Below, in pieces: positions 5,009-63,418 of a stretch of 63,811 bases of DNA. The position numbers and the translations under genes are program-made. The stretch is taken from positions 1 through 63,811 of IMG/VR virus record IMGVR_UViG_3300045135_000802. One strand, written 5' to 3'. The DNA comes from a virus. The notes beneath the pieces were generated by a model. That model was not told where the DNA came from. It searched no databases and saw only the letters and a program-made list of their open reading frames with translations. How positions within the stretch are numbered: position 1 is the first letter of the stretch; each line of letters starts with the position of its first letter.

Positions 5009-5016
5009 ATTATATA
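5009..5016 (-). promoter_or_regulatory. Possible leftward -10 element
   Basis: The minus strand reads TATATAAT in the divergent gap, about 45 nt before the gp4 ATG. It could be a -10 element for the leftward tail block. No good -35 hexamer is visible, and it is not an exact late octamer. Confidence 0.25.
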
Positions 5017-5026
5017 GGGTATCCTA

Positions 5027-8120: not shown

Positions 8121-8129
8121 GAGATATAA

Positions 8130-12486: not shown

Positions 12487-12489
12487 TTT

Positions 12490-13393: not shown

Positions 13394-13482
13394 ATAGGTT
13401 AAGAACTGAATAATCTTAATTTGGCTTAAAGCGGACATTATTGATTATACTTGAATGTTAATTGAAAGTAAAGGACTTTTTT

Positions 13483-13656
13483 ATGGAATTACACGATTCT
13501 TTAGTAAATTTATTTGAAACATACGCTTTTGAGAGCGATAAGTTCAAAGAAGGAAATGCCTCAGCTGGAACAAGAGCACGAAAAGCTCTTGCTGAAATAT
13601 CTAAACTATGTAAAGAACGAAGAGCTGAGATACAAACTATTAAAAACGGAAAATAA
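13483..13656 (+). CDS. Histone H1-like (Hc1-type) protein
   Basis: The 57-residue product resembles the N-terminal helical domain of the Hc1 histone H1-like family, with the signature GNASAGTRARKALAEISKL followed by KERRAEIQ. It lacks the long Lys/Ala-rich DNA-binding tail of chlamydial Hc1. The ATG at 13483 has AAAGGA 7 nt upstream; an in-frame TTG at 13462 lies before that ribosome site and is not preferred. It follows an 89-base gap after PAAR and sits just before gp25. It may bind DNA or serve as a small virion or assembly protein; the sequence does not decide. Confidence 0.7.
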   Translation: MELHDSLVNLFETYAFESDKFKEGNASAGTRARKALAEISKLCKERRAEIQTIKNGK

Positions 13657-13660
13657 ATAA

Positions 13661-14056
13661 ATGGCACAACCTAAGAAAGATATCTTTAGCGACTTGGATC
13701 TAGCGTTTATACCGCATCCAGCTACAAGTCAGGTTGTGCGTAAGAGAGATAGAGACGCTGTGAAACAATCAGTTAAGTCTCTAATTTTGACGAACTATTA
13801 TGAGCGACCTTTTAAATCTGATATTGGCTGTTCTATTCGTCAGCATCTTTTCGAATTGTTCACTCCTGCTACTAAGCAGAATATGGAAAGAGCTATTCGT
13901 GAAGTCATCAAAAACTACGAACCAAGAGCTGAAATCATAGACGTGTTCGTGGAAGACTACCCCGAAAGAAACGCATTAACGGCATCACTTGCCTTTATGG
14001 TTAAGAACGACCCCACGCCTGTTGTTCTTGATCTATTACTAGAAAGAGTACGATAA
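13661..14056 (+). CDS. 25: gp25-like baseplate wedge protein
   Basis: The 131-residue product matches T4 gp25 (132 residues), the wedge protein with a gp25-like lysozyme fold that starts sheath assembly together with gp6 and gp53. Family features are IFSDLDLAFIPHP near the start, AVKQSVKSLILTNYYERPF, then DIGCSIRQHLFELF and a conserved Glu-rich end. Start is ATG 13661, four bases after the Hc1-like stop; the gp6 ATG follows its stop directly. Confidence 0.95.
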   Translation: MAQPKKDIFSDLDLAFIPHPATSQVVRKRDRDAVKQSVKSLILTNYYERPFKSDIGCSIRQHLFELFTPATKQNMERAIREVIKNYEPRAEIIDVFVEDYPERNALTASLAFMVKNDPTPVVLDLLLERVR

Positions 14057-45900: not shown

Positions 45901-46194
45901 GATACTCTTAAGACCTACATATATGTATCATCCAACTGGGTACAGACTAACCCAACGCCAGATTCAACAGCTGGTATGGTTGAATATGAATACACCTCGG
46001 CAAATAACCAGACAACATACTCTGGAGTAGATAACTACAGCTCAACGTTGTCATATACACCAGGAAATATTCTAGTATTCATGAACGGTATTAAACTAGC
46101 AAGAGCCGACTACGTAGCAAACACAGGAACATCAGTTGTGTTGAGCAGCGCTGCGGCTGAAGATGATATTGTAGAAATAGTATCTTACAAGTAA
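42964..46194 (+). CDS. Long repeat fibre related to the 9388 fibre
   Basis: The 1076-residue product consists of LANTNAYIATKAD repeats, four copies of a block reading LDTLNELAAALGDDANFAST preceded by DDRMQVANV, and four VLELGDIVGTDGNPGQII segments, one of which drifts. These parts are shared with the fibre at 9388, but the ends differ: here the C-terminus is a VFMNGIKLARADYVANTGTS module that also occurs near the N-terminus of the 46207 protein. It also contains VTYDLGSSTNAWRDLYLSG. An AAGG-type site precedes the ATG. It is likely to be a long thin fibre. Confidence 0.78.
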   Translation: MPANTIVIPIKAIYTNGDVTALGELNPGDKLSSDFINLSSYVANSEFQAFIANTNAYIADVAVNAGEVSNAYLTSTFTTNTDFQAALANTNAYIAYVAANAGEVSNAYLTSTFTTNTAFQSAVTSLNLSVDDRMQVANVTAAISTAISGLVDSAPATLDTLNELAAALNDDANFASTVTTSLAGKASNSFVTSTYTTNTDFQSALANTNAWIATVAATPSGLSNSEVNTLIDGKLQVLELGDVVGTDGNPGQIIFSNGDGTGYWANNNPAVDLSGYVETTTFNSALANTNSYIGTKLDSSSYTTADVQSKAALANTNAYIATKTDDATVLATNTALRVLIDDRMQVANVTSAISTAISNLVDTAPATLDTLNELAAALGDDANFASTVTTSLAGKASNAAFQSALANTNAYIATKADSTTVASNLANTNAYIATKLDSSTYTTADVQSKAALANTNAYIATKADSSTVESYLANTNAYIAYVAANAGEVSNAYLTSTFTTNTAFQSALANTNAWIATVAATPSGLSNTEVNTLIDGKLQVLELGDIVGTDGNPGQIIISNGDGTGYWSNNTPAVDLSGYVETTTFNSALANTNAYVATKADSTTVASNLANTNAYIATKTDDTVALATNTALRILVDDRMQVANVTSAISTAIANLVDTAPSTLDTLNELAAALGDDANFASTVTTSLAGKASNADFQSALANTNAWIATVAATPSGLSNTEVNTLIDGKLQVLELGDIVGSDGNPGQIIISNGDGTGYWANNSSGGGTVDLSAVAQSIVPSANVTYDLGSSTNAWRDLYLSGNTVYLAGQAAITVDGTGSIVLPASTKIGTDTLGASYASNAALQSAIANTNAYIATKTDDTVALATNTALRLLVDDRMQVANVTSAISTAIANLVDTAPATLDTLNELAAALGDDANFASTVTTSLAGKVSNTDFQSALANTNAYIASATAASGNASITVANSTPVSPVEGNLWFDNDTLKTYIYVSSNWVQTNPTPDSTAGMVEYEYTSANNQTTYSGVDNYSSTLSYTPGNILVFMNGIKLARADYVANTGTSVVLSSAAAEDDIVEIVSYK

Positions 46195-46206: not shown

Positions 46207-47649
46207 ATGGCAGTTATATTTCCTAGCAGTCCTGTAGATGGACAAACGTATACAGTAGGAGTTACGGTATATCGTTATTCATCTAGCAAAGGAGTTTGGA
46301 ACGCTCAAACAGTTTCAGCTAACTCTATCTATCTTCCAGGAGCTCTAGAAGGGTATGTGTACACTTCGTCTAACGGGCAGACGACTTTTAGTGGCGCTGA
46401 TAACTTTGGTAAGACTCTTTCTTACAATACCTCGGATAAGGTTCAAGTATATCTTAACGGTGTTAAGCTGATCGGTAATACCGACTATACAGCTACAAGC
46501 GGCTCTACGGTTGTTATGAGCGATGGGGTAGCAGCAAACGATGCTATTGATATTGTTACTATTCAGGCTGCTTCTTCAGGTTCTTCTAGCGGTGGTGGAT
46601 TATTGTGGGACGGGGTTACTAACTTCTATTCTAATACGACTCCAGCAGTAGATACCGATCCAACAGCTAACGGTGCGTTGTGGGTAGACTATACAACTGG
46701 TGCTATCTATATCTGTACAAACAATACGTCAGGAAACAATGTCTGGACAGTGACTAGTTCATTAGCAACTACGGTTGAACCGACGCCTCCTTGGTCGTTC
46801 CAAGGAAGCAATTATGGATATGTTTCTGGCGGTTATAGCGGAGGGTTTCTTACTAGCATCGACAAGTTTCCGTTCTCAACTGACGCTAACGCAACTGATG
46901 TTGGTGATATGACGGTTGCTAGATATTTCGCAGCAGGTCAATCATCAGCAGACTACGGATACACTTCTAGCGGCAATGCTTCCCCATTAACAAACGTCAT
47001 CGACAAGTTCCCATTTGCTAATGATGGTACCGGATCTGTTATCGGATACTTAACTGTTAGTAGACAGTACATAGCTGGTCAATCCTCTTCAGAATACGGT
47101 TACACTTCTGGCGGTTATCTTCCAGGATCCACAAACATCATCGATAAGTTTCCATTCTCAACTGACGCTAATGCTACAGATGTAGGTGATCTAACGGTTG
47201 CTAGATTTGGTCCAGCAGGACAATCATCTCCAGATTATGGATACTCTTCTGGCGGACATAACTCAAACGTCATCGACAAGTTCCCGTTCGCAACAGACGC
47301 TAATGCTACTGATGTAGGTGATCTAACGGTTGCTAGACGTTATTCAGCAGGACAATCATCTGAAACTTATGGATACGCTTCTGGTGGTACTGGTCCTGGC
47401 GGAGCTTTGTCTAACGTAATCGATAAGTTCCCATTTGCTACCGACGCTAACGCAACTGATGTAGGCGATCTAACGGTTGCTAGATCTTCTGCGGCAGGAC
47501 AATCGTCTACCGACTATGGTTACTCTTCTGGCAGTGATGGTGCGACGGCAAACATCATCGACAAGTTCCCATTCTCGTCTGATGCTAATGCTTCTGATGT
47601 TGGTGATCTAACGGTTGGTAGATATGCTGCAGCAGGGCAACAATACTAA
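46207..47649 (+). CDS. Six-bladed propeller fibre protein, copy 1
   Basis: The 480-residue product has three leader modules: FPSSPVDGQTYTVGVTVYRY at the start, a QVYLNGVKLIGNTDYTATSG module (about residues 80-115) and, after a Gly/Ser linker, a WDGVTNFYS...LWVDYTTGAIYIC module (about 137-185). The propeller follows from about residue 198 with six repeats and ends AGQQY. Blade 2 is the least regular (ANDGTGSVIGYL). Unlike the copies downstream, it has long N-terminal modules. AGGAAC is the probable ribosome site. Confidence 0.75.
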   Translation: MAVIFPSSPVDGQTYTVGVTVYRYSSSKGVWNAQTVSANSIYLPGALEGYVYTSSNGQTTFSGADNFGKTLSYNTSDKVQVYLNGVKLIGNTDYTATSGSTVVMSDGVAANDAIDIVTIQAASSGSSSGGGLLWDGVTNFYSNTTPAVDTDPTANGALWVDYTTGAIYICTNNTSGNNVWTVTSSLATTVEPTPPWSFQGSNYGYVSGGYSGGFLTSIDKFPFSTDANATDVGDMTVARYFAAGQSSADYGYTSSGNASPLTNVIDKFPFANDGTGSVIGYLTVSRQYIAGQSSSEYGYTSGGYLPGSTNIIDKFPFSTDANATDVGDLTVARFGPAGQSSPDYGYSSGGHNSNVIDKFPFATDANATDVGDLTVARRYSAGQSSETYGYASGGTGPGGALSNVIDKFPFATDANATDVGDLTVARSSAAGQSSTDYGYSSGSDGATANIIDKFPFSSDANASDVGDLTVGRYAAAGQQY

Positions 47650-47664: not shown

Positions 47665-48897
47665 ATGTCATACAGAAAAAGTAAAAATAGATTGATGAGT
47701 GACCTTTTTGGTAAGGCTGAACTCTTCTCATTCAGTAATACTTCAGCAACAGGAGTATCGTTCGACTCATCGATTGCTGGAGTAGCAACGTCTATCGATT
47801 CTGTTAGTAATAGCGTGTTTCAATCGTTTGTCTCAAATACCAACTTACAGATAGCTGGAATAAGTGGCGGGTTGGTATGGGATGGAGTTACTAACTTCTA
47901 TTCTAATACGACTCCGAGCGTTTCGGCGAACCCTACATCGAATGGCGGTTTGTGGGTAGACTACACAACTGGCGCTATCTATGTTTGTAGGGATAATAAG
48001 ACCGGAAATAACGTCTGGACAGCAACTATAGGCACAGCTAATACAGTTGCTCCAACTCAGCCAGTTCCACTATTTCCTGGCGAGAACTATGGATACGCTT
48101 CTGGCGGGCAGGGCTATGGCACTATCACTAATATAAATAAGTTTCCTTTTGCGTCAGACGCTAATGCTGTAAATATCGGGAACCTAACGAACAATATTAC
48201 GCCACGTAGGGGAACTGGAGCATCATCTGAAACTGAAGGGTTCCACGTAGGGAAATACCCTATTGTGGATAAATGGTCGTTTGCTTCTGACGGGAATGCT
48301 ACAAACGTAGGATCTTTTGGTATATATAGAGCGGCTGGACAATCTTCCATAGGGCAAGGTTACGGATACATGTCTGGGGGAGAACCCAATACGTCTAATG
48401 TTTCAAAATTTTCTTTTTCAACATATGCGAAGACAGCTGGAATCGCAACTCTTACTTCAGCAAGAGGGCAAGTTTGTGGACAATCAAGCAACTTTTATGG
48501 ATATACTTCTGGTGGCGGGAGCACGATAGATAAATTTCCATTCGTTAGCGAAGGAACTGCTTCGCTTGTAGGAAATCTATACACTTCTGCATACGAAGGC
48601 GGACCAAATTCATCTGCGACACACGGGTATGTAGCGGGTACAACACCGAAATCTACAACAATACATAAGTTCCCATTTGCTTCTGATAATAACGGGTCGT
48701 TTGTAGGAAACCTCACGGTTTCTAGGGGTTATAGCTTGGCTGGTGCATCGTCGACCGATTATGGGTATATATGTGGCGGATACCTCCCAACATACCACAA
48801 TGAAATTGATAAATTTTCGTTTGCCTCAGATGCCGACGCTACTGATGTCGGTAATCTAACGACTGCAGGTTACGGAATGGTAGGAAATCAATACTAA
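47665..48897 (+). CDS. Six-bladed propeller fibre protein, copy 2 (divergent)
   Basis: The 410-residue product starts MSYRKSKNRLMSDLFGKAEL, shared with the next gene, then carries the WDGVTNFYS/LWVDYTTGAIYVC module of copy 1. Its propeller is the most diverged of the family: blade 2 has lost the YGYxSGG turn (GFHVGKYPIVDKW), blade 3 reads FSFSTYAKTAGI, blade 5 has the unusual KSTTIHKFPFAS, and the end is VGNQY rather than AGQQY. AAAGG precedes the ATG. It may be an older copy under different selection. Confidence 0.72.
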   Translation: MSYRKSKNRLMSDLFGKAELFSFSNTSATGVSFDSSIAGVATSIDSVSNSVFQSFVSNTNLQIAGISGGLVWDGVTNFYSNTTPSVSANPTSNGGLWVDYTTGAIYVCRDNKTGNNVWTATIGTANTVAPTQPVPLFPGENYGYASGGQGYGTITNINKFPFASDANAVNIGNLTNNITPRRGTGASSETEGFHVGKYPIVDKWSFASDGNATNVGSFGIYRAAGQSSIGQGYGYMSGGEPNTSNVSKFSFSTYAKTAGIATLTSARGQVCGQSSNFYGYTSGGGSTIDKFPFVSEGTASLVGNLYTSAYEGGPNSSATHGYVAGTTPKSTTIHKFPFASDNNGSFVGNLTVSRGYSLAGASSTDYGYICGGYLPTYHNEIDKFSFASDADATDVGNLTTAGYGMVGNQY

Positions 48898-48912: not shown

Positions 48913-50130
48913 ATGTCATACAGAAAAAGTAAAGCGAGGCTATTGGGCGACCTTTTTGGTAAGGCGTCAATCTTTACATACAACTCAGCTTCAGCTCAAG
49001 AGATTACGATCGACTCAGAGAAAGCTGCTGTCGCTTCATCAAACGTTACGTCAACTACATTAGACTCTATATCTGAAGATATACTACCTTCAGCGAACAA
49101 TACGCATAGCCTTGGTAGTGTGGGTATGGTATGGAGAGATATGTATCTTGGTCCAGGATCTCTATACGTAAACGGAAAGAAAGTACTATCGGATGAGTCT
49201 GATACAATTACCCTAGCGACCGATACGAATCAAAGCCTAGCACTAACTACAACAGGTACAGGCGAAACTAATATAAACTCTAACTCTGGCATCAATATTA
49301 TTGCTACTGGGGCGGGTGACGTTACTTTACAAACGACTAGTGGTAATATTGAAGCTAGAGGAACGCTTCAGCTTCTTTCTGGTAAACGTATTACTGACAG
49401 CGCTGGAACAAAAGTTCAGTTCGGCGATTCTATCGAAATGAACGGAAATAAGATTATTGGGCTAGGAACTCCAACAGCAGATACTGATGCGGCAACTAAA
49501 GCTTATGTAGACGCTAACGGTGGCGGTGGCGGTTCAGTTGACCTATCTAATACCAACCTAGCGATCGACGACCGTATGCAGGTTGCTAACGTTGCTTCTG
49601 CGATTTCAACAGCCATTGCTAACCTAGTTGACACAGCTCCTTCTACACTAGACACGCTGAATGAACTCGCAGCTGCCTTAGGCGATGATGCTAACTTCTC
49701 GACAACTGTAGCAAACACTATAGCTACAAAATTAGATATAACTACTTTCCAAGCTGCGTTAGCAAATACGAATGCGTATATCGCTGCGTCTGCTAGTTCT
49801 GGTTCAGGAAGCTCGAGCTATGTAACGCTAACTCAGGAAGGAACACTCGAAACGCTTACAGGAACTGCTAGATGGTATGCTCCAAAATCAATTACTATAA
49901 GTAATATAACAGCAAGAGTAGATACAGCTTCTGCGGGAAGTTCCGTGAACTTAACAGTTCTTAAGAATGGAACGTCTGTAGCAACGATGAGTATATCAGC
50001 TGGCGGAGTGAAAGCTACAAATACAACTGGATTTTCGATGGTCGCCGATGACTATCTAACAATTAATGTTACTCAAGTTGGATCGTCTACCGCTGGTGAC
50101 ACGCTTAAAGTAACGTTCGAATATTCTTAA
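48913..50130 (+). CDS. Fibre with copy-2 head and a beta-sandwich tip
   Basis: The 405-residue product begins MSYRKSKARLLGDLFGKASI, nearly the head of the previous gene, but its remainder is different: a GMVWRDMYLGPGSLYVNGKK module, a GDVTLQTTSGNIEARGTLQL beta-shaft, KAYVDANGGGGGS, one TLDTLNELAAALGDDANF block, and a C-terminal beta-sandwich (TARWYAPKSITISNITARVD and VTQVGSSTAGDTLKVTFEYS) that is a common fibre tip. It shows that one adaptor can carry either a propeller or a different head. An AAAGG ribosome site lies upstream. Confidence 0.75.
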   Translation: MSYRKSKARLLGDLFGKASIFTYNSASAQEITIDSEKAAVASSNVTSTTLDSISEDILPSANNTHSLGSVGMVWRDMYLGPGSLYVNGKKVLSDESDTITLATDTNQSLALTTTGTGETNINSNSGINIIATGAGDVTLQTTSGNIEARGTLQLLSGKRITDSAGTKVQFGDSIEMNGNKIIGLGTPTADTDAATKAYVDANGGGGGSVDLSNTNLAIDDRMQVANVASAISTAIANLVDTAPSTLDTLNELAAALGDDANFSTTVANTIATKLDITTFQAALANTNAYIAASASSGSGSSSYVTLTQEGTLETLTGTARWYAPKSITISNITARVDTASAGSSVNLTVLKNGTSVATMSISAGGVKATNTTGFSMVADDYLTINVTQVGSSTAGDTLKVTFEYS

Positions 50131-53090: not shown

Positions 53091-54227
53091 GTGCCTATAA
53101 ATTTATCCAATTTAAAAAGTATTCTAGACAGTCTACTAGAAGCTAATGCGGCTGTAGACTCCGTAGAAACGAATCGATTACAAGCCCTCTCGAATACGTT
53201 TGTTGATTTGCGTGGCGGACTAACGTACACAAGCAATACTCAGTTCCCTACTCCTGATGGGTCTAACGCTGGGTCTATTGTAGAAGATCTAAGTTCAAAT
53301 ACTTTCTACTTCTCTACAGGTAGCGAATGGAGAGTGTTTAATACTAGTAACACGATTGTTGATCAGACTGTTCCTTGGACATTCCAAGGAAGTAACTATG
53401 GGTATAGTTCTGGCGGCGAGCCAACTACAAACATAATCGACAAGTTCCCGTTTGCGGTTGATTCTAACGCTACTGACGTTGGAGATCTGTCGGTTGCTAG
53501 GCATTATTCAGCAGGTCAATCATCGGAAACTTACGGATATTCTTCTGGCGGTTATAATACTGCTGAGGTAAACATCATCGATAAGTTTCCGTTCGCAGTT
53601 GATGCTAACGCAACTGATGTTGGCGATCTAACGGTTGTTAGGTTTGGTTCTGCGGGTCAGTCGTCTACCGACTATGGTTATACTTCTGGTGGTGCGGTTC
53701 ACCCGTACACAAACACGATTGATAAGTTTCCTTTCGCTGCTGACGGTAATGCTACGGATGTTGGCGATCTAACGTTTTCGCCCTATGGCGTAGCGGGTCA
53801 ATCCTCTACCGAGTACGGTTATGCTGCTGGCGGACTTTTAGCCCCTGCAGTAAGCACTATTAATAAGTTTCCTTTCGCAACAGACGGTAATGCTACTTTT
53901 GTTGGGAACCTAACGGTTGCTAGGTATAAGCAAACTGGACAATCATCTTCAGACTATGGATATACTTCTGGAGGAGGAAATCCCGCAGCAACAAACATAA
54001 TCGATAAGTTCCCGTTTGCTTCTGATGCTAATGCGACTGATGTAGGTGATCTAACGGTTTCACGGTTTCAAATTGCTGGTCAATCGTCTACGGATTACGG
54101 ATACGCTTCTGGCGGGGCGCCAGCCTTAAACGTAATCGACAAGTTCTCGTTCTCAGCTGACGGTAATGCGACTGATGTAGGCGACCTAACAGTTGCTCGT
54201 CAGTCTGCAGCAGGACAACAATACTAA
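53091..54227 (+). CDS. Propeller fibre protein, array gene 1 (adaptor type a)
   Basis: The 378-residue product starts with GTG, with GAAGGGA 7 nt upstream. Adaptor type a covers residues 1-95: MPINLSNLKSILDSLLEANA, then GLTYTSNTQFPTPDGSNAGS and an FYFSTGSEWRVF end. Six repeats follow from about residue 97. Blade 4 is the most divergent (STINKFPFATDGNATFVGNL). Loops vary (GEPTTN, GYNTAEVN, GAVHPYTN, GLLAPAVS, GGNPAATN, GAPALN). It is the first gene behind the variant late element. Confidence 0.78.
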   Translation: MPINLSNLKSILDSLLEANAAVDSVETNRLQALSNTFVDLRGGLTYTSNTQFPTPDGSNAGSIVEDLSSNTFYFSTGSEWRVFNTSNTIVDQTVPWTFQGSNYGYSSGGEPTTNIIDKFPFAVDSNATDVGDLSVARHYSAGQSSETYGYSSGGYNTAEVNIIDKFPFAVDANATDVGDLTVVRFGSAGQSSTDYGYTSGGAVHPYTNTIDKFPFAADGNATDVGDLTFSPYGVAGQSSTEYGYAAGGLLAPAVSTINKFPFATDGNATFVGNLTVARYKQTGQSSSDYGYTSGGGNPAATNIIDKFPFASDANATDVGDLTVSRFQIAGQSSTDYGYASGGAPALNVIDKFSFSADGNATDVGDLTVARQSAAGQQY

Positions 54228-54236
54228 GGATTAAGA

Positions 54237-55388
54237 ATGGCTATTAATACTACACACATATTAACCGCTATCCAAAATATTGTTGGCTCGGCTAATACAG
54301 ATAATATTTCTACACAAACAATGATTGATCTTGTAAAAGCATCTAAGTCATTGTATGGCGGTTCAGTTCTAGAATCATATGCTAATACTTCGTTCTTTCC
54401 TACAGCGGAAAGCAGTCATAAGACACTAGCATTTGATGAGGCAACAAGAACTCTATACCTAAACGATTCAGGCGTATGGACAGCACTTGATGCTACCGTT
54501 CCTTCAGCTGCTGGCAGCAGTAGTTACACATTCCAAGGAAGCAACTATGGTTACTCTTCTGGCGGAAATCCAGGAACAAACGTTATTGATAAGTTCCCGT
54601 TCTCAGCTGATGCTAACGCATCTGATGTTGGTGATCTAACGGTTTCTAGATATCAATCAGCGGGTCAATCGTCATCTGATTACGGGTATACTTCTGGCGG
54701 AATACCAAGTCCAGGAGGCATAAACGAAATCGACAAGTTCCCGTTCTCAACTGATGCGAATGCTACTGATGTGGGCGATCTAACGGTAGGAAGAAGATTT
54801 ATGTCGGGACAATCCTCTTCCGAATATGGCTACACTTCTGGTGGATATTATCCCGCACAGTCAGATGTTATTGATAAGTTTCCGTTCTCAACTGATGCTA
54901 ATGCTACGGATGTAGGAAATCTAACGGTTGCAAAGGGGGTAACAGGAGGACAATCGTCTTCAGAATATGGTTATGTTTCTGGAACCGCTTGGCCATTTGG
55001 TACCGTAATTGAGAAATTTTCATTTTCAACTGACGTTGATGCTACTGATGTTGGTGATCTAACGGCAGCAAAGTGGAAGATGACTGGTCAGTCTTCTTCA
55101 GATTATGGCTACAACTCCGGAGGTGTTACAGATCCTGGAGTTTACCAGAACGTAATCGAAAAGTTTCCGTTCGCATCTGACGGAAATTCAGCTGATGTCG
55201 GTGATCTAACCGTTGCTAGAAATGCTCCAGCAGGTCAATCATCTACCGATTACGGTTATACTTCTGGCGGTTATTTGCCAGGAATCACGAACATAATCGA
55301 CAAGTTCTCGTTCTCATCTGATGGTAATGCTAGCGACGTAGGCGATCTAACGGCTTCTAGAAATTACGCAGTAGGACAACAATACTAA
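54237..55388 (+). CDS. Propeller fibre protein, array gene 2 (adaptor type b)
   Basis: The 383-residue product has adaptor type b: TTHILTAIQNIVGSANTDNI, SKSLYGGSVLESYANTSFFP and a LYLNDSGVWTAL end, then an Ala/Ser linker. Six repeats follow. Blade 4 is atypical, with SGTAWPFGTVIEKFSF in place of SGG. Adaptor b is shared closely with the next gene, suggesting a local duplication. The ATG is 10 nt after the stop of gene 1 with AAGGA between. Confidence 0.78.
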   Translation: MAINTTHILTAIQNIVGSANTDNISTQTMIDLVKASKSLYGGSVLESYANTSFFPTAESSHKTLAFDEATRTLYLNDSGVWTALDATVPSAAGSSSYTFQGSNYGYSSGGNPGTNVIDKFPFSADANASDVGDLTVSRYQSAGQSSSDYGYTSGGIPSPGGINEIDKFPFSTDANATDVGDLTVGRRFMSGQSSSEYGYTSGGYYPAQSDVIDKFPFSTDANATDVGNLTVAKGVTGGQSSSEYGYVSGTAWPFGTVIEKFSFSTDVDATDVGDLTAAKWKMTGQSSSDYGYNSGGVTDPGVYQNVIEKFPFASDGNSADVGDLTVARNAPAGQSSTDYGYTSGGYLPGITNIIDKFSFSSDGNASDVGDLTASRNYAVGQQY

Positions 55389-55400
55389 GGATAATAAGAA

Positions 55401-56558
55401 ATGGCAATAGATACTACACACATATTATCCGTTATTCAGAATATTGTTGGTGCGGCTAATAGTACTAATATTGATACGGAAGGATTAACAAATCTTCTTA
55501 AGTCTTCAAAACGACTATATGGCGGTGCTGTAATAGAGTCTTATGCTAACACAAGCGTATTCCCTACAGCAAACAGTACGGTTAAGACACTAGCATTTGA
55601 TGAGTCGACAAGAACTCTATATCTAAACGATTCAGGTGTATGGACTGCTGCTGGAGCTACAGTTCCTGATGCTGCTGCTGGCGGCAGTAGTTGGTCGTTC
55701 CAAGGAAGCAACTACGGTTACACTTCTGGTGGTTCAACCCCCTCCACTTCAAACGTCATCGACAAGTTCCCATTCTCAACAGACGCTAACGCAACTGATG
55801 TAGGTGATCTAATAAGTGTTTTGAGAAGGGGCGCAGGTCAATCATCTACTGAGTATGGTTATCAATCTGGTGGTGAATCTCCGGCTGATGCAACATCAAA
55901 TATAATCCAGAAGTTTGCTTTTGCAACTGACGGCAACGCAACCGATGTCGGTAATCTATCGGTCGGTAGACGTGAAACTACAGGGGCATCTTCTTCCGAT
56001 TCCGGTTACACTATTGGCGGTTATACCGGATTAAGATCAAACGTAATCGACAAGTTCCCGTTTGCTTCTGATGCTGATGCAACCGATGTCGGCGATTTAA
56101 CAGAAAATATGAGAATGTCCGCAGGGCAATCATCAACCGATTATGGATATTCTTCTGGTGGTAATAGCGATAGCACGAGCTATATGACCACAATACAAAA
56201 ATTCCCGTTCTCATCTGATGCTAATGCTACTGATGTTGGTGATCTGACGGCTGGTAGATATATGTCAGCAGGTCAATCATCAGCTGACTATGGGTATACT
56301 TCTGGTGGAGGATATCCAGCGGTAAATATAATAGACAAGTTTCCGTTTGCGGCAGATGGAAATGCAACAGATGTAGGTGATCTAACCGCTGGTAGATATA
56401 GCGTTGCAGGACAATCGTCTACGGATTACGGATATTCTTCTGGCGGCACTCCGATGACTAACGTCATCGACAAGTTCCCGTTTTCGTCTGACGCTAACGC
56501 AACTGATGTTGGTGATCTAACGGTCGCTAGATTTGGTCCAGCAGGACAACAATACTAA
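55401..56558 (+). CDS. Propeller fibre protein, array gene 3 (adaptor type b)
   Basis: The 385-residue product carries the second type b adaptor (TTHILSVIQNIVGAANSTNI through LYLNDSGVWTAAG) with a slightly longer Ala/Gly linker. Six repeats follow; blade 1 reads DLISVLRRGAGQ, blade 2 ends NIIQKFAFATDGN and blade 3 has YTIGGYTGLRSN. The adaptor is closer to gene 2 than the blades are, so adaptor and head appear to evolve independently. The ribosome site is AAGGA. Confidence 0.78.
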   Translation: MAIDTTHILSVIQNIVGAANSTNIDTEGLTNLLKSSKRLYGGAVIESYANTSVFPTANSTVKTLAFDESTRTLYLNDSGVWTAAGATVPDAAAGGSSWSFQGSNYGYTSGGSTPSTSNVIDKFPFSTDANATDVGDLISVLRRGAGQSSTEYGYQSGGESPADATSNIIQKFAFATDGNATDVGNLSVGRRETTGASSSDSGYTIGGYTGLRSNVIDKFPFASDADATDVGDLTENMRMSAGQSSTDYGYSSGGNSDSTSYMTTIQKFPFSSDANATDVGDLTAGRYMSAGQSSADYGYTSGGGYPAVNIIDKFPFAADGNATDVGDLTAGRYSVAGQSSTDYGYSSGGTPMTNVIDKFPFSSDANATDVGDLTVARFGPAGQQY

Positions 56559-56568
56559 GGATTAAACG

Positions 56569-57681
56569 ATGCCAGCTAATACAATAAACACAATAGCGTC
56601 ATTTACGGTAGATACAGATCCTTTTGAGATCCTACAGACGATTAAAACAGTAACGTCAACTGATGTTGCTAATAACATTTATGCTTATGCTAACACGTTG
56701 CCGACTGCTAACACGATTAATCTCGGAATGACTGCTTACGTTTACAATGACGGTCTTTACATCTGCGATGGAACTCAGTGGTATCCGTTGGCGAATACTT
56801 ATACGTATATCCCTCCTTCTTGGACGTTCCAAGGAAGTAACTACGGATATATTTCTGGCGGTTATCCGACATCAACAAAAACCGTCGATAAGTTCTCATT
56901 CTCAGCTGACGGTAACGCTACCGATGTTGGTGATCTAACGGTTGCTAGAAGTGATCTAGCAGGGCAATCGTCTACCGACTATGGCTACACTTCTGGGGGA
57001 ACAATATGGCCAAGCTACTACAATATCATCGATAAGTTCCCATTCTCAACTGATGCTAATGCTACAGATGTCGGCGATCTAACGGTTTCTAGATCTGGAC
57101 CAGCTGGACAATCTTCAATTGACTACGGCTACGCTTCTGGCGGTTATAACGGTTCAGCAACCTCAAACGTCATCGACAAGTTCCCCTTTTCTACTGACGC
57201 TAATGCTACTGACGTTGGTAATCTAACGGTTGCTAGGGCAAATCTGGCTGGTCAATCATCTACTGACTATGGCTACACTTCTGGCGGTAGCGCTCCAGGA
57301 GCTACAAACGTAATTGAAAAGTTTCCGTTTTCAACCGACGCTAATGCTACTGATGTAGGCGATCTAACGGCTGCTAGATATGCATTATCAGGTCAATCAT
57401 CTACTGACTACGGTTACACTTCTGGCGGTAATCCGCCATACTCAAACGTCATCGACAAGTTCCCATTCGCAGCCGACGCTAATGCTACAGATGTTGGGGA
57501 CCTAACATTAAATAAGGAAAGGTCGTCAGGTCAATCGTCTACTGACTACGGCTACACTTCTGGGGGAACTTTATTAAACGAAAACGTTATCGAAAAGTTC
57601 CCGTTTGCTACTGATGCTAATGCGACCGACGTTGGCGACCTAACAGCTAATAAATATGCCGCAGCAGGACAACAATACTAA
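56569..57681 (+). CDS. Propeller fibre protein, array gene 4 (adaptor type c)
   Basis: The 370-residue product has adaptor type c, with DPFEILQTIKTVTSTDVANN, IYAYANTLPTANTINLG and LYICDGTQWYPLA. The six repeats are among the most regular of the array, with variable loops such as GYPTSTKT, GTIWPSYYN and GYNGSATSN. Blade 5 ends DLTLNKERSSGQ. Its stop and leader (TAAGGATTAAACG) are the same as those of its neighbour. Confidence 0.78.
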   Translation: MPANTINTIASFTVDTDPFEILQTIKTVTSTDVANNIYAYANTLPTANTINLGMTAYVYNDGLYICDGTQWYPLANTYTYIPPSWTFQGSNYGYISGGYPTSTKTVDKFSFSADGNATDVGDLTVARSDLAGQSSTDYGYTSGGTIWPSYYNIIDKFPFSTDANATDVGDLTVSRSGPAGQSSIDYGYASGGYNGSATSNVIDKFPFSTDANATDVGNLTVARANLAGQSSTDYGYTSGGSAPGATNVIEKFPFSTDANATDVGDLTAARYALSGQSSTDYGYTSGGNPPYSNVIDKFPFAADANATDVGDLTLNKERSSGQSSTDYGYTSGGTLLNENVIEKFPFATDANATDVGDLTANKYAAAGQQY

Positions 57682-57691
57682 GGATTAAACG

Positions 57692-58843
57692 ATGCCTATT
57701 AATATATCAAATATAACAAGTATTCTAAATTCTAGTATTGAGTCTGCTAACACTTCTACAGATACACTAGAACTTATGAAGATGGCTTCTCTTGCTGATT
57801 CGTTGAATGAAGTTAGAGGTTCCTTAGTGTATTCTAGTAATACTGAGTTCCCCACACCAAGCATTACTAACGCTGGAGCTATCGTAAAAGACTCAAGTGC
57901 TAACACATTCTACTTCTCTACAGGTGAAGAGTGGAGAGTGTTTGGGTTGTATGAAGCACCTGCTTGGTCGTTTGGTGGAAGCAATTATGGATATACGTCT
58001 GGGGGTGTAGGTAGCGGTTATTTAAGTTCAATAGAGAAATTTTCTTTTTCGTCAGATGGAAACGCTACATCTGCGGGGTCTCTAACAGTAAACAATTCTT
58101 ATGCTGGATCAGGACACTCTTCTTCTACTTATGGATACGTTGCTGGGGGGCAAGCGCCCCCTTCGGTAAACGTAATACAGAAGTTTGAATTCGCTTCTGA
58201 TGGCGACACAACGGATGTCGGGGATTTGTTGTTTATAGTTCAACGTCAGGCAGGACAATCATCTTCAGACTATGGCTACACTTCTGGCGGTGCCCACCCT
58301 TTAAATAGTTTCGAAAACACTATACAAAAATTTTCTTTCTCGTCAGACGCTGACGCCGCTGATGTAGGTGACTTAACGGTTGGTAGATCCAACCCTGCCG
58401 GTCAATCATCTACTGACTATGGTTACACTTCCGGTGGACTAGAGCCTGCAACTTCAACTGTAATCGACAAGTTCCCATTTTCTACTGACGCTAATGCAAC
58501 TGACGTTGGCGATCTTTCCGCCACTAGAGCATACGCATCCGGACAATCATCTTCAGAATATGGTTACAATTCTGGAGGGCAGGTTAGCACCTCAAAAACA
58601 AACGTTATCGATAAGTTTTCTTTTGCAACGGATGCGAATGCTACTGATGTAGGTGATCTAACGGTTGTTAGAAAACAACCAGCAGGACAATCGTCTACGG
58701 ATTATGGTTACACTTCTGGAGGAGAACCGTCTCCAGTTTTATCTAATGTAATTGATAAGTTTCCGTTCGCATCTGACGCTAATGCTACTGATGTTGGCGA
58801 TCTAACAACTGCTAGATATGGCGCAACAGGACAACAATACTAA
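57692..58843 (+). CDS. Propeller fibre protein, array gene 5 (adaptor type a)
   Basis: The 383-residue product returns to adaptor type a (MPINISNITSILNSSIESAN, LVYSSNTEFPTPSITNAG, FYFSTGEEWRVF). Blades 1 and 2 are diverged (SLTVNNSYAGSGHSS; EFASDGDTTDVGDLLFIVQR), while blades 4 to 6 are regular. The first blade opens with WSFGGSNYGY rather than the usual WSFQGSNYGY, as in gene 6, pointing to exchange between these neighbours. Confidence 0.78.
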   Translation: MPINISNITSILNSSIESANTSTDTLELMKMASLADSLNEVRGSLVYSSNTEFPTPSITNAGAIVKDSSANTFYFSTGEEWRVFGLYEAPAWSFGGSNYGYTSGGVGSGYLSSIEKFSFSSDGNATSAGSLTVNNSYAGSGHSSSTYGYVAGGQAPPSVNVIQKFEFASDGDTTDVGDLLFIVQRQAGQSSSDYGYTSGGAHPLNSFENTIQKFSFSSDADAADVGDLTVGRSNPAGQSSTDYGYTSGGLEPATSTVIDKFPFSTDANATDVGDLSATRAYASGQSSSEYGYNSGGQVSTSKTNVIDKFSFATDANATDVGDLTVVRKQPAGQSSTDYGYTSGGEPSPVLSNVIDKFPFASDANATDVGDLTTARYGATGQQY

Positions 58844-58852
58844 GGATTAAAC

Positions 58853-59992
58853 ATGGCAGCTAATACACAAAACCTGATAACGACGGTATCCTCTATTGTT
58901 GGAACATATTCTGAAAGCACTAGTGTTGACGATATCCTTAGAGGAATTAAACTTGTAAACAAAGTAGATTCAGCAAACAACATCTATGCTTATGCTAATA
59001 CATTGCCTACTGCTAACAGCATAACCGTTGGTATGACTGCTTATGTAGATAACGATGGCTTGTATATTTGTGACGGAGCTCAGTGGTATCCGTTGGCGAA
59101 TACGTATACAGCACCTGCTTGGTCGTTTGGCGGAAGCAACTACGGTTACTCTTCTGGGGGTATGGCTCCACCATATTCAAACATCATTGATAAGTTTCCG
59201 TTCGCAACCGATGCGAATGCTACGGATGTCGGTGATCTAACGGTTGCTAGGCGTTACTTAACGGGGCAATCGTCTACCGTTTACGGTTACTCTTCTGGCG
59301 GTAATATCCCCCCAAACACAAACGTTATCGAAAAGTTCTCATTCTCAACTGATGGTAATTCTACTAGTGTTGGTACTCTAACGGTTGCTAGATATGGCGC
59401 AGCAGGTCAATCGTCAGCTGACTACGGATACAATTCTGGCGGATCTCCAACAACCCCAAGAACAATCGATAAGTTCCCGTTCGCATCTGATGGCGCTTCT
59501 ACTTATGTTGGCGATCAAACGGTTGTTAGAGTCTACATGGCAGGACAATCATCTTCAGAATACGGTTACACTTCTGGAGGATATAATCCCGCTACTACTC
59601 CAACATACTCAAACGTCATTGACAAATTCCCGTTCGCTGCTGATGCTAACTCAACTGGCGTTGGAGACCTAACGGTCGCCAGAAATAGCCCAGCAGGTCA
59701 ATCATCTTCAGATTACGGGTATTCTTCTGGTGGAACTGCTCCGCCATACTCAAACGTCATTGACAAATTCCCGTTCGCAACTGACGCTAATGCTACTGAT
59801 GTCGGTGATCTAACGGTTACTAGGCGTTACGTAACGGGTCAATCATCTACCGATTATGGATACTCTTCTGGTGGATACTTTCCGACCGGATACAACGTAA
59901 TCGACAAGTTCTCATTCTCGGCTGACGCTAATGCTACTGATGTCGGGGATCTAACGGTTGGTAGATATGGCGTAGCAGGACAACAGTACTAA
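58853..59992 (+). CDS. Propeller fibre protein, array gene 6 (adaptor type c)
   Basis: The 379-residue product has a type c adaptor like gene 4, with NNIYAYANTLPTANSITVGM and LYICDGAQWYPLA. Six repeats follow, with two loops (GMAPPYSN and GTAPPYSN) that are nearly equal in blades 1 and 5. Blade 3 has lost residues (SPTTPRTIDKF). Its stop is followed by TAAATAATGT rather than the common junction. Confidence 0.78.
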   Translation: MAANTQNLITTVSSIVGTYSESTSVDDILRGIKLVNKVDSANNIYAYANTLPTANSITVGMTAYVDNDGLYICDGAQWYPLANTYTAPAWSFGGSNYGYSSGGMAPPYSNIIDKFPFATDANATDVGDLTVARRYLTGQSSTVYGYSSGGNIPPNTNVIEKFSFSTDGNSTSVGTLTVARYGAAGQSSADYGYNSGGSPTTPRTIDKFPFASDGASTYVGDQTVVRVYMAGQSSSEYGYTSGGYNPATTPTYSNVIDKFPFAADANSTGVGDLTVARNSPAGQSSSDYGYSSGGTAPPYSNVIDKFPFATDANATDVGDLTVTRRYVTGQSSTDYGYSSGGYFPTGYNVIDKFSFSADANATDVGDLTVGRYGVAGQQY

Positions 59993-59999
59993 ATAATGT

Positions 60000-61115
60000 A
60001 TGCCGATAAGTTTATTAGATATACCATACATTGCTAACTCTAGATTCTACAGCTCGAATACACAAAATACTTCGGCTGTAGAACTAGCTCGCATATCCGC
60101 TCTACAGAACCTCACGTTAAACGTAAACTCTGGTCTAGTATATTCTAGTAATACCGACTTTCCAACCGCTGGTACTCATAACGCTGGACAGATAGCATAC
60201 TCTCAATCTGCTAATGCTTATCTTTACTCTACGGGTTCTTCGTGGGAAGCTGTTAATTTTGGATGGCAAATCCCTTGGACATTTCAAGGAAGCAACTACG
60301 GTTACACTTCTGGCGGGTATCCATCAACAAACATCATTGATAAGTTCTCATTCTCCGCTGACGGTAACGCAACTGATGTAGGCGATCTAACAGTTGCTAG
60401 ATTTAACGCAGCAGGGCAATCGTCAGCTGACTATGGTTACAGTTCTGGCGGTAGCCCGACTACGAACATCATTAATAAGTTCTCATTCTCAGCTGATGGT
60501 AATGCGACTGACGTAGGTGATCTAACGCTTGCTAGGTATAGACCAACAGGTCAATCGTCTTCTGAATATGGTTACACTTCTGGTGGTAGTCCAACTACGA
60601 ACATAATCGACAAGTTTCCATTCTCAACTGACGGTAATGCGTCTGATGTAGGTGATCTAACAGTTGCTAGAGTTGGTCCAGCAGGGCAATCGTCTACCGA
60701 CTATGGATACACTTCTGGCGGGTATCCAACAACAAACATCATCGACAAGTTCCCATTTGCGGCTGACGGTAACGCAACTGATGTCGGCGACCTAACAGTT
60801 TCTAGATATAACGTAACAGGACAATCATCTTCTGAATATGGGTATACTTCTGGCGGCTATACTGGATCAAACTCAAACATCATCGACAAGTTCCCGTTCG
60901 CAACTGACGCTAATGCTACTGACGTTGGTGATCTAACGGTTGCTAGGAGGTTATTAGCAGGTCAATCTTCTTCAGAATACGGTTACACTTCTGGCGGTTA
61001 TATTACAGGATCCACAAACATCATCGACAAGTTCTCATTCTCAGCTGATGGCAACGCAACTGATGTTGGTGATCTAACGGCTTCTAGATCAGGCGGTGCT
61101 GGGCAGCAGTACTAA
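60000..61115 (+). CDS. Propeller fibre protein, array gene 7 (adaptor type a-like)
   Basis: The 371-residue product starts seven bases after the stop of gene 6 with no close ribosome site; AGGA lies about 19 nt before the ATG, so re-initiation is likely. The adaptor is a diverged type a (LVYSSNTDFPTAGTHNAGQI, YLYSTGSSWEAV). The first four loops are short and alike (GYPSTN, GSPTTN, GSPTTN, GYPTTN), suggesting recent blade duplication or gene conversion inside the gene. Confidence 0.78.
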   Translation: MPISLLDIPYIANSRFYSSNTQNTSAVELARISALQNLTLNVNSGLVYSSNTDFPTAGTHNAGQIAYSQSANAYLYSTGSSWEAVNFGWQIPWTFQGSNYGYTSGGYPSTNIIDKFSFSADGNATDVGDLTVARFNAAGQSSADYGYSSGGSPTTNIINKFSFSADGNATDVGDLTLARYRPTGQSSSEYGYTSGGSPTTNIIDKFPFSTDGNASDVGDLTVARVGPAGQSSTDYGYTSGGYPTTNIIDKFPFAADGNATDVGDLTVSRYNVTGQSSSEYGYTSGGYTGSNSNIIDKFPFATDANATDVGDLTVARRLLAGQSSSEYGYTSGGYITGSTNIIDKFSFSADGNATDVGDLTASRSGGAGQQY

Positions 61116-61140
61116 ATAAAGTACGTAAAGGAAAAGAGTT

Positions 61141-61407
61141 ATGTCTGACGCTACTGTATTATTAGATGCTATACAACAAAAGATTGGGGAAGTGAGTTCT
61201 TCTACCGATACAGCAACGTTACATCTATTAGTAAGGGTAGCAACAATAGTTTGTCAAGGAACTACAATACAATTATATAATAACTCTACTGAGTTTCCAA
61301 GCACTATTTCAACAAATAAGTTAATTATTTTCAATAAAGATGATAAGAAACTTTACTTTAATTTCGGAGCTGACGGTTGGGTAGCAACTAACGCTACCGC
61401 ACCTTAA
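61141..61407 (+). CDS. Adaptor-only member of the propeller family (88 aa)
   Basis: The 88-residue product looks like a complete N-terminal adaptor without a propeller: a helical start (VLLDAIQQKIGEVSSSTDTA), QLYNNSTEFPSTISTNKLII and the closing KKLYFNFGADGWVATNATAP, which occupies the place of LYxxxGxxW in the full-length proteins. A TAAAGGAAAAG leader gives a good ribosome site. The stop TAATAA follows directly, so the head seems lost or never present. It could occupy adaptor sites without a head, or be a relic. Confidence 0.7.
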   Translation: MSDATVLLDAIQQKIGEVSSSTDTATLHLLVRVATIVCQGTTIQLYNNSTEFPSTISTNKLIIFNKDDKKLYFNFGADGWVATNATAP

Positions 61408-61414
61408 TAATATT

Positions 61415-62554
61415 ATGCCCACACCTCAAGAACTCGCAACTCAATTATTGAACGCTGCTAACAATGTAGCGATTATGGAAGCATGTTCTGATATTATTCA
61501 GTTCTATGCGATTGAGCGAAACTCTCCGACTACAGATACAACGTATTCTACGATCGGCAACCTTCCTACAGCTAACTCAAGCAATGAGGGGTTCGTAGCT
61601 TACGTTACAGGAGCAGCCTCGCTATTTGTTTCTACAGGAACCGATTGGTATGATATAAATGAAGTTCCTACAGAACCGATACCATTTCAAGGATCTACTT
61701 CAGGGTTTGCTACAGCGCATACCTATATTCAAGAATTCTCTTTTGCTTCTGACGGTAACGCTACTGACGTCGGAAACTTATCTTCAAGTCGAACTCAGGG
61801 TTCTGGGCAATCATCAGCCGACTACGGATACACCTCAGGCAGCTGGACTCCAGGAAACATCATAGATAAGTTCCCGTTTGTATCTGGAGGAACTGCAACT
61901 GACGTAGGCGACCTATCAGTATCTACAGCCTATGGCGCTGGACAATCTTCTATTACAAACGGTTATGGGTATTCTTCAGGCGGCAATTTGAATCCTGGAT
62001 ATAGTAGTGTAATCGATAAGTTCCCGTTTGCTGCCGATACAAATGCTTATGATAGTGGAGATTTGACAGCGGCAAGGTACGGGGGAATAGGGCAATCGTC
62101 TACCGAATACGGCTACACTTCTGGCGGATTTGGAACTCCTGTACACAATGTAATTGATAAGTTTCCGTTCTCAGCTGACGCTAATGCGACCGATGTTGGA
62201 GATTTGCTAGAGTACGCATATTGGGGTGCTGGCCAATCATCTACCGAGTATGGATACTCTTCTGGGGGAACTCCGCCATCATACAATTTTTATGTTACAA
62301 ATAGAATACAGAAATTCCCGTTTGCTTCAGATACAAATGCGGCACACGTAGGATATCTAACTCAAAGTAGAAGGCTTTCTGCGGGTCAATCGTCTACCGA
62401 TTATGGATACACTGCTGGCGGGCTCGGTTACGTAAATTATAGCCCAGTATATCTTAATATAATAGATAAATTCCCTTTCTCTTCTGATGCTTGGGCTTCT
62501 GATGTTGGGGATCTTGCGGCTGTTCAAATAGGTCTGGTTGGTCAACAGTACTAA
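61415..62554 (+). CDS. Propeller fibre protein, array gene 8 (adaptor type d)
   Basis: The 379-residue product is the last and most diverged array member. Its adaptor (PTPQELATQLLNAANNVAIM, IGNLPTANSSNEGFVAYV, LFVSTGTDWYDI) has only the second half in common with type c. Blade 1 reads GSTSGFATAHTYIQEFSFAS without YGYxSGG; blades 5 and 6 have long loops (GTPPSYNFYVTNR, GLGYVNYSPVYLN). It ends VGQQY. Its stop region, TAAATAAAGG, resembles that of gene 7. Confidence 0.77.
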   Translation: MPTPQELATQLLNAANNVAIMEACSDIIQFYAIERNSPTTDTTYSTIGNLPTANSSNEGFVAYVTGAASLFVSTGTDWYDINEVPTEPIPFQGSTSGFATAHTYIQEFSFASDGNATDVGNLSSSRTQGSGQSSADYGYTSGSWTPGNIIDKFPFVSGGTATDVGDLSVSTAYGAGQSSITNGYGYSSGGNLNPGYSSVIDKFPFAADTNAYDSGDLTAARYGGIGQSSTEYGYTSGGFGTPVHNVIDKFPFSADANATDVGDLLEYAYWGAGQSSTEYGYSSGGTPPSYNFYVTNRIQKFPFASDTNAAHVGYLTQSRRLSAGQSSTDYGYTAGGLGYVNYSPVYLNIIDKFPFSSDAWASDVGDLAAVQIGLVGQQY

Positions 62555-62587: not shown

Positions 62588-63418
62588 ATGAAACAGATAC
62601 ACTTCTGTAGCGGACTTCCTCGCTCAGGTTCTACCGTTCTTATGAACATCCTACAACAGAACCCTGAGCTATTCACTACAGCTACCGATCCTCTTCCCTT
62701 TATCCTTCATAAGAAGGTTCTTGTTCGCTCACGCTATAATGAACAAGTACAAGCCATGGATCAATATCAAGCTGATGCGGCTTACACAGGGCTTATTAGA
62801 GGAGCGGCTCAAGGTTGGTACGAAGGTCTAACAACTAAACCAAACGTTATATCTAAAGCACGCAACTGGGGCGACCTTCATCATCTATTCCCTGAGTCTA
62901 AGACTCTAGTTATCGTTCGTGATCTTAGAGATATTGTAGAGAGCTTTGATCGAGTTAATAGTAAGCTTGGCGCTATGAGTACATTAGGCGACGGAGACGT
63001 TCTTTATAACTCTATGCCTGTTGAGCAGAAATACTCTTATCATTTCCATTTCGATAACGCTCTAAAAGAAGCTCTCGAAAGAGAAGTTAAAAAATATATG
63101 TTGCTTTTTAAGCAAGATCGTAGTAAAATAAAATTTATACGTTACGAAGATCTCCTAAAAGACCCAGTTCAATCTCTAGATAATATCTATGACTTCCTTG
63201 GAATGGATCGCTTTGAACATGATCTAAATAATATACAACAGTCAGAAATGAAAGAGCATGATAATGCTTACTTTGCTGAAAAGACTGATCACAAAACAAA
63301 ACCTCAGTTAATGGGCTGGAAAGAACCTACTAGGATTCTTGGTGATGAGTTTCATGCGAACGTAGTTAGAGAACATGCTTGGTTTTATGAAGCTTTTTAT
63401 CCGGAGGTATTAAAGTGA
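62588..63418 (+). CDS. Sulfotransferase family protein
   Basis: The 276-residue product is a PAPS-dependent sulfotransferase. The 5'-phosphosulfate loop is GLPRSGSTVL at residues 9-18, and the 3'-phosphate motif is VIVRDLRDIVESFDRVNSKLG-like at residues 108-128 with Arg111 and Ser119. A KIKFIRYEDLLKDP motif and a C-terminal Trp-Lys-Glu-Pro complete the family pattern. It would transfer sulfate from PAPS to a hydroxyl of a sugar or protein; the acceptor is unknown. GGAG lies 9 nt before the ATG. It directly follows the propeller array and overlaps the oxygenase gene (GTGA). Confidence 0.85.
   Translation: MKQIHFCSGLPRSGSTVLMNILQQNPELFTTATDPLPFILHKKVLVRSRYNEQVQAMDQYQADAAYTGLIRGAAQGWYEGLTTKPNVISKARNWGDLHHLFPESKTLVIVRDLRDIVESFDRVNSKLGAMSTLGDGDVLYNSMPVEQKYSYHFHFDNALKEALEREVKKYMLLFKQDRSKIKFIRYEDLLKDPVQSLDNIYDFLGMDRFEHDLNNIQQSEMKEHDNAYFAEKTDHKTKPQLMGWKEPTRILGDEFHANVVREHAWFYEAFYPEVLK

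What the first reader, a model, noticed from the sequence alone, without database searches (positions are those of the whole stretch)
53091..62554. Tandem array of eight predicted six-bladed propeller adhesins, plus two outlying copies
Counting repeats by eye gives exactly six in every member (53091, 54237, 55401, 56569, 57692, 58853, 60000, 61415, and the two at 46207 and 47665), about sixty blades in total. Framework residues (YGYxSGG, IDKFPF, DANATDVGDL, AGQSS) are constant while two loops per blade vary in sequence and length. A fixed blade number with variable loops suggests closed propellers whose loops bind different surface ligands. A phage carrying ten different heads at once, or exchanging them, would be unusual. 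Kelch-type propellers are known binding folds; their use as a multi-copy phage adhesin bank is inference.
Basis: partly seen in the sequence, partly recalled or inferred. Interest (0 to 1): 0.9.

Follow-up and report, generated by a model that had tools for sequence, protein, structure and literature searches.

The report
Bank of swappable phage propeller heads
A T4-like phage carries ten genes that each end in a six-bladed Kelch propeller whose variable loops all sit on one face, and near-identical phages carry different propellers on the same stubs, which looks like a swappable bank of host-recognition heads (binding itself is not yet shown).

Summary
Ten ORFs each have exactly six ~47-residue repeats (60 in all), an invariant framework and variable loops. 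AlphaFold2 with 116 relatives gives a confident closed propeller (pLDDT 93, pTM 0.92) that matches solved Kelch domains (Z about 34-35). Variability sits in the BC and DA loops, the ligand-binding face of Keap1.

The family is large and poorly described: phrog_19111 'unknown function', with at least 301 relatives in IMG/VR. In a sister family, proteins have 12, 18, 24 or 30 repeats, and a linker follows every sixth one, which shows from sequence that the unit is a ring of six.

Between two phage contigs 96-99% identical in the flanking genes, five of seven propeller genes keep a similar anchor (81-99%) but carry a propeller only 58-69% identical, with synonymous sites diverged too: head replacement by recombination. 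The window also holds a headless anchor gene.

A Sulfotransfer_3 gene directly follows the array here and abuts propeller genes in about 35 other contigs, across both families.

Best reading: a bank of tail-fibre heads on conserved anchors, exchanged as cassettes. Virion location and ligand binding are inferred. Phages with many receptor-binding proteins are known; a Kelch-head bank built this way was not found described.

The parts
46207..47649 (+). Propeller protein: anchor with a tail-fibre domain + six-bladed Kelch propeller
   Evidence: Six repeats; anchor 41% identical over 115 aa to the C-terminus of tail fibre 42964-46194, E 2e-17
47665..48897 (+). Propeller protein, most divergent blades; its propeller (48052-48894) is the one modelled
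   Evidence: AF2 pLDDT 93.3, pTM 0.92; N-terminus shared with fibre-like 48913 (41%, E 2e-15)
53091..54227 (+). Array gene 1 (GTG start), anchor + six-bladed propeller
54237..55388 (+). Array gene 2, anchor + six-bladed propeller
55401..56558 (+). Array gene 3, anchor + six-bladed propeller
56569..57681 (+). Array gene 4, anchor + six-bladed propeller
57692..58843 (+). Array gene 5, anchor + six-bladed propeller
58853..59992 (+). Array gene 6, anchor + six-bladed propeller
60000..61115 (+). Array gene 7, anchor + six-bladed propeller
61141..61407 (+). Headless anchor: 88 aa that ends where a propeller would begin
   Evidence: phmmer E 2e-11 to the anchor of 55401 and 5e-11 to that of 54237 (10-sequence set); E 6e-11 to a propeller protein in L029; sequence
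61415..62554 (+). Array gene 8, anchor + six-bladed propeller (first blade divergent)
62588..63418 (+). Sulfotransferase (PF13469), directly downstream of the array
   Evidence: Pfam 2.9e-16; abuts propeller genes in many other contigs of both families
42964..46194 (+). Long tail fibre protein upstream; its C-terminal domain is shared with the anchor of 46207
   Evidence: PHROG tail families, best 3.6e-57
48913..50130 (+). Fibre-like protein with the same N-terminus as propeller protein 47665 but another C-terminus
   Evidence: PHROG tail protein 4.4e-19
5027..21533 (+). T4-like baseplate and hub genes that identify the phage as T4-like
   Evidence: PHROGs baseplate tube cap, hub/lysozyme and wedge subunits, E down to 4.5e-153; closest isolates for the wedge protein: Methylophilales Melnitz and Pelagibacter HTVC008M phages at 36-40%

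Best explanation
The ten genes encode tail-fibre-type adhesins. A short N-terminal anchor of about 90-200 residues docks on the fibre or baseplate, and a C-terminal six-bladed Kelch propeller presents twelve variable loops (one BC and one DA loop per blade) on a single face. That face binds host surface structures, most likely glycans or outer-membrane proteins. The opposite face and the core are held constant. New specificities arise mainly by recombination that replaces the whole propeller domain on a resident anchor, so that sister phages differ in which heads they carry. SHOWN: repeat number, fold prediction, one-sided variability, conserved anchors with replaced heads, shared domains with tail fibres, linkage to a sulfotransferase. 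INFERRED: presence in the virion, ligand binding, simultaneous display of all heads, function of the sulfotransferase (most likely modification of the host surface or of the heads).
For: Six repeats in all ten, in 178 of 191 distinct relatives, and multiples of six with linkers after every sixth repeat in the sister family. AF2 pLDDT 93.3, pTM 0.92, 24 strands. Foldseek E 7.6e-15 and TM 0.85 to designed Kelch SAKe6AC, E about 3e-14 to Keap1; VIA Z 35.1 to 7ona and 34.0 to Keap1 1zgk. The profile finds SAKe6FR (5.6e-14) and KLHL12 (2e-10) by sequence alone. Mean entropy BC 2.98 and DA 2.89 against CD 1.43 and strands 0.87-1.65 bits; BC and DA loops form the Keap1 substrate face (PMC4668279). 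L033 versus L071: flanking genes 96-99% (one short gene 99.6%), five propeller genes with anchors 81-99% but heads 58-69%, two with both conserved; at unchanged residues 40-53% of codons differ in swapped heads against 2-8% in flanking genes and the unswapped head. Over all sampled genes, 7 pairs share the anchor but not the head, none the reverse. Headless anchor at 61141. Anchors share domains with tail-fibre proteins. A Kelch protein (CBB_552) was found by mass spectrometry in the virion of phage CBB (PMC5259590).
Against: No proteomics or ligand data for this family. The CBB virion protein is only a fold relative. Anchors are diverse and most have no assigned family, so docking is inferred. 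The best swap example is one pair of contigs from metagenomes; chimeric assembly of a single contig cannot be wholly excluded, although the same pattern occurs in other pairs. No donor of a swapped head was found. Late-promoter-like matches are not above chance, so expression is unresolved.
Confidence: 0.72

Rival explanations
1. The propellers are virion proteins but not receptor binders: they are decoration or spacer domains (for example whisker-like surface appendages) whose loops vary without selection for binding.
For: Phage CBB has Kelch proteins and tail whiskers, one of the proteins being in the virion, though the whisker gene is unknown (PMC5259590). Single copies would suffice for spacers, and some relatives are strings of rings.
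Against: Neutral drift does not explain variability on one face only, nor repeated head replacement while anchors and flanks stay constant.
Confidence: 0.13
2. The propellers act inside or outside the infected cell rather than in the virion, for example as protein-binding adaptors or secreted decoys, as in eukaryotic and poxviral Kelch proteins.
For: Kelch domains are commonly protein-binding adaptors; nothing tested places these proteins in the virion.
Against: The genes lie between tail-fibre genes in a T4-like tail region and share anchor domains with fibre proteins. In the pelagimyophages described in PMC7029224 the hypervariable host-recognition cluster lies in the structural region.
Confidence: 0.1
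3. The copies are a silent reservoir: only one or a few heads are displayed, and the rest feed new sequence to the expressed one by recombination.
For: Head replacement by recombination is seen between phages; blades within one gene are hardly more alike than blades of different genes (0.726 against 0.708), as expected if blades or heads are shuffled.
Against: All ten genes have full ORFs with their own anchors and start codons, 7-13 bases apart in most of the array; silent cassettes usually lack the constant part. No privileged expression site is visible.
Confidence: 0.08
4. The diversity is made by a diversity-generating retroelement.
For: Hypervariable positions in phage receptor-binding proteins are often retroelement targets (PMC10743442).
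Against: No reverse transcriptase in the window or in nine other records with propeller genes, six of them over 140 kb; BC loops vary in length, and whole heads with diverged synonymous sites are replaced.
Confidence: 0.03

Closest known systems
Kelch six-bladed propellers (Keap1, KLHL12; designed SAKe proteins)
   Same: Fold, blade number, strand order, closure by a C-terminal A strand, double glycine after strand B, variable loops on the BC/DA face
   Different: No Trp in strand D and no BTB/Cul3 partners; much lower sequence diversity in the framework; tandem gene bank in a phage
Kelch proteins of jumbo phage CBB (CBB_550, 552, 554)
   Same: Several Kelch propellers in one contractile-tailed phage; one is a virion protein
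   Different: Distant (best fold match TM 0.64, 14% identity); no array of near-identical frameworks or anchor/head swapping reported in the passages read
Multi-receptor-binding-protein phages (phiKp24, RaK2, phiK64-1)
   Same: Many alternative heads on anchors in one phage, conserved N-terminus and variable C-terminus
   Different: Their heads are trimeric beta-helix depolymerases with enzyme activity; here the heads are Kelch rings with no enzyme site assigned
Host-recognition cluster of pelagimyophages and cyanomyophages; metaviromic islands
   Same: Hypervariable fibre region in marine T4-like phages, with surface-modifying enzymes nearby
   Different: 'Kelch' does not occur in the two papers searched; the enzymes described are glycosyltransferases rather than an adjoining sulfotransferase
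phrog_19111 (unknown function) and Synechococcus phage S-SKS1 repeat proteins
   Same: Homologous repeats (E 4e-31 to the PHROG; about 28% to S-SKS1), adjoining sulfotransferase in S-SKS1
   Different: S-SKS1 proteins carry two rings per polypeptide and are only annotated as hypothetical or not at all

Membership tests
Kelch six-bladed beta-propeller | Six four-stranded blades in a closed ring | tested here: met
   AF2 (24 strands, pLDDT 93); VIA Z 33-35 over about 260 residues; multiples of six in the sister family
Kelch six-bladed beta-propeller | Kelch sequence signature (GG after strand B; aromatic in C; Trp in D) | tested here: inconclusive
   GG and aromatic strand C present, Trp absent; single window proteins miss Pfam Kelch models, but the profile matches Kelch chains at 2e-10, and 31 of 116 relatives match PF24681 and 27 match Kelch_3 at E 0.1 or better
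Phage tail-fibre / receptor-binding protein | Located in the tail-fibre region, with domains shared with fibre proteins | tested here: met
Phage tail-fibre / receptor-binding protein | Conserved N-terminal anchor with a variable C-terminal recognition domain | tested here: met
Phage tail-fibre / receptor-binding protein | Present in the virion and binds a host receptor | not testable with these tools
   Needs proteomics and binding assays
Diversity-generating retroelement target | Linked reverse transcriptase and template/variable repeats | tested here: not met
   No RVT_1 match in ten records; records are fragments, so this is strong only for the larger ones
phrog_19111 | Profile match over several repeats | tested here: met
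   E 4.4e-31 to 5e-11 for the six window proteins scanned

The most novel reading that the evidence does not exclude
A repertoire-like recognition system: a phage keeps 6-13 Kelch rings, each a 12-loop binding surface on a constant scaffold, exchanges whole rings as cassettes on fixed anchors (leaving headless stubs in between), and pairs them with a dedicated sulfotransferase that sulfates either the heads or the host receptor. The gene linkage is kept in both the one-ring and the many-ring family.
Probability: 0.3. Interest if true: 0.82.

Novelty: new variant of a known kind. Interest (0 to 1): 0.68.

Why it matters
It gives a fold, a binding face and an exchange unit to a large, unannotated family of tail-region proteins in aquatic T4-like phages, whose host-recognition regions are known to be hypervariable but mostly unexplained. 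It makes a direct prediction (which 12 loops set specificity; which junction recombines) and offers a lead on the unexplained sulfotransferases of phages. The scaffold resembles protein engineers' designed Kelch rings, but nature has already varied its loops on a large scale.

Tried and rejected
AF2 with the ten paralogues only failed (pLDDT 42.6); the near-identical repeats gave no usable signal until 116 diverse relatives were aligned. tblastn of a window propeller (60000) against isolated phages found nothing at 1e-5; divergent window members found S-SKS1 and AG-345. Pfam hits to Erf4, DUF4907, DUF6502 and THDPS_M are low-complexity noise with no passing stretch or partial matches. Tyrosine sulfation of the [DE]YGY motif by the adjoining sulfotransferase: the acidic residue before Tyr is common in the window (0.69) but near zero in most other arrays with the enzyme, so a simple DY/EY-motif version is not supported. 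Retroelement: no reverse transcriptase. Late-promoter control: TATAAATA matches 8 against 5.35 expected, not significant. Sigma-70 and terminator scans were below shuffles. Gene conversion homogenising the framework DNA: rejected, since framework codons are mixed (12,284 synonymous against 10,605 nonsynonymous codon differences). Reverse chimeras (same head on different anchors) were looked for and not found. The one five-blade case (L006 against six in near-identical L007/L021) may be assembly collapse or a real deletion; not resolved.
Full report
CHECK OF THE OBSERVATION. Cutting them at the GY..G motif gives six repeats in each, 60 in all (one blade with YGYTSSG had to be added to the motif). 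Repeats are 41-51 residues long. Over the 60 window blades, framework positions are near-invariant. The BC loop (after YGYxSGG) is 2-13 residues long with 59 of 60 sequences distinct, and three residues of the DA loop (after TVAR) have 3.1-3.45 bits of entropy. Length varies mainly in the BC loop.

FOLD. A first AF2 run with only the ten paralogues failed (pLDDT 42.6). With 116 diverse relatives (A4) the propeller of protein 47665 was predicted with pLDDT 93.3 and pTM 0.92, and 24 strands. Foldseek ranks designed and natural six-bladed Kelch domains first (7ona E 7.6e-15, TM 0.85; KLHL12 and Keap1 about 2e-14 to 3e-14). VIA-align gives Z 35.1 to 7ona and 34.0 to Keap1. A sequence profile alone also finds Kelch chains (SAKe6FR 5.6e-14, KLHL12 2e-10). 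So this is a Kelch propeller, though it lacks the classical Trp and single window proteins miss the Pfam Kelch models. Only one of the ten heads was modelled; the rest follow by homology and register.

THE NUMBER SIX. In IMG/VR, 301 stretches encode relatives; the best 80 gave 68 loci. Of 191 distinct complete ORFs, 178 show exactly six repeats; most exceptions are divergent proteins in which blades were missed. A sister family, reached through Synechococcus phage S-SKS1, has 12, 18, 24 or 30 repeats per protein: 85 of 91 distinct complete ORFs with at least six repeats have a multiple of six. Every one of 102 boundaries after a sixth repeat carries a linker of at least 8 residues, against 13 of 935 other boundaries. 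This is independent sequence evidence that the unit is a closed ring of six, strung as beads in the sister family and single in the window's family.

WHERE IT VARIES. On an alignment of 96 propellers, mean entropy is 2.98 bits in BC loops and 2.89 in DA loops, against 1.43 in CD loops and 0.87-1.65 in strands. The short AB turn is intermediate (2.44). BC+DA against CD+AB gives a Mann-Whitney p of 1e-14, with the caution that positions and sequences are not independent. In Keap1 the substrate pocket is made by exactly the DA and BC loops of one face (PMC4668279).

HOW IT CHANGES. Contigs L033 and L071 are near-identical outside the propellers: the sulfotransferase is 96.6% identical, the next genes 95.9-98.9%, and a short gene inside the array 99.6%. 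Among seven aligned propeller genes, two are conserved throughout. Five have anchors at 81-99% identity but propellers at 58-69%, with the break at or near the start of the propeller. In four of the five for which codons were compared, 40-53% of codons differ at unchanged residues in the swapped heads, against 2-8% in flanking genes and in the unswapped head, so the heads were replaced by recombination and not re-mutated in place. Over all sampled genes, seven pairs share the anchor but not the head and none the reverse. In L012 against L045 the flanking genes are mostly 87-94% identical (lowest 75%) but most propellers only about 66-70%. In the window, ORF 61141-61407 is an anchor without a head. 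Blades in one gene are hardly more alike (0.726) than blades of different genes (0.708), and framework codons are mixed, so constancy is kept at the protein level.

SURROUNDINGS. The window carries T4-like baseplate genes, with the closest isolates for the wedge protein being Methylophilales and Pelagibacter phages at 36-40%. The array lies beyond tail-fibre genes. The anchor of 46207 shares a 115-residue domain with the end of fibre 42964, and the N-terminus of 47665 is shared with fibre-like 48913. A Sulfotransfer_3 protein follows the array by 34 bases. A homologue abuts a propeller gene in about 19 further contigs of the same family, in S-SKS1, and in about 16 contigs of the sister family, often with 4 bases between stop codon and open frame. 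These loci were fetched by propeller similarity, so presence within the stretch is conditioned; the tight adjacency is not. The role of phage sulfotransferases is stated to be unclear in the literature read (PMC10580990). Fourteen records searched hold 6-13 propeller matches each.

MECHANISM. The simplest reading is a bank of host-recognition heads: constant anchor, constant ring, twelve variable loops on one face, head exchange by recombination at the anchor boundary. Virion location rests on gene context, shared fibre domains, and one distant Kelch protein proven in a virion (CBB_552, PMC5259590). Whether all ten heads are mounted at once is open; the genes are closely packed in one direction, and promoter scans were not informative. 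The sulfotransferase may modify host surface polysaccharide (to spare progeny or exclude rivals, as proposed for glycosyltransferases in PMC7029224) or the heads themselves; a plain acidic-Tyr motif is not kept across arrays.

NOVELTY. Phages with many alternative receptor-binding proteins are known (phiKp24 has fourteen, PMC9700779), as are hypervariable fibre islands in marine phages (PMC3909814, PMC7029224) and occasional Kelch proteins in phages (PMC5259590; P-HM2 in PMC3037559). I found no description of Kelch-ring head banks, the multiples-of-six architecture, head swapping on fixed anchors, or the sulfotransferase link, within the limits of an open-access library. I therefore call it a new variant of a known kind.

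Noticed in passing
window 62588-63418; L001, L009, L033, L041, L047, L055, L063, L067, L069, L137, L140, L154 and others: Sulfotransferase gene abuts propeller genes in both propeller families, a lead on the unexplained sulfotransferases of aquatic phages.
   Followed up: partly
window 61141-61407: Anchor-only ORF without propeller inside the array.
   Followed up: yes
L069 (HQ633071.1) 1657-3416 and 4343-6192: In the S-SKS1 record two double-ring propeller genes are each split across overlapping frames (9+3 and 3+9 repeats) and some are not annotated; sequencing error or pseudogenes.
   Followed up: partly
L207 3265-8187: Single ORF with 30 repeats, that is five predicted propeller rings in a row with linkers of 23-27 residues.
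   Followed up: no
L006 1857-2894 versus L021 11186-12370: Five blades against six in otherwise nearly identical contigs; assembly collapse or a real blade deletion.
   Followed up: no
L212-L217 (MAGs labelled Gammaproteobacteria and Proteobacteria, incl. Glaciecola): Propeller relatives in contigs binned into bacterial MAGs; possible host hints, or binned phage contigs.
   Followed up: no
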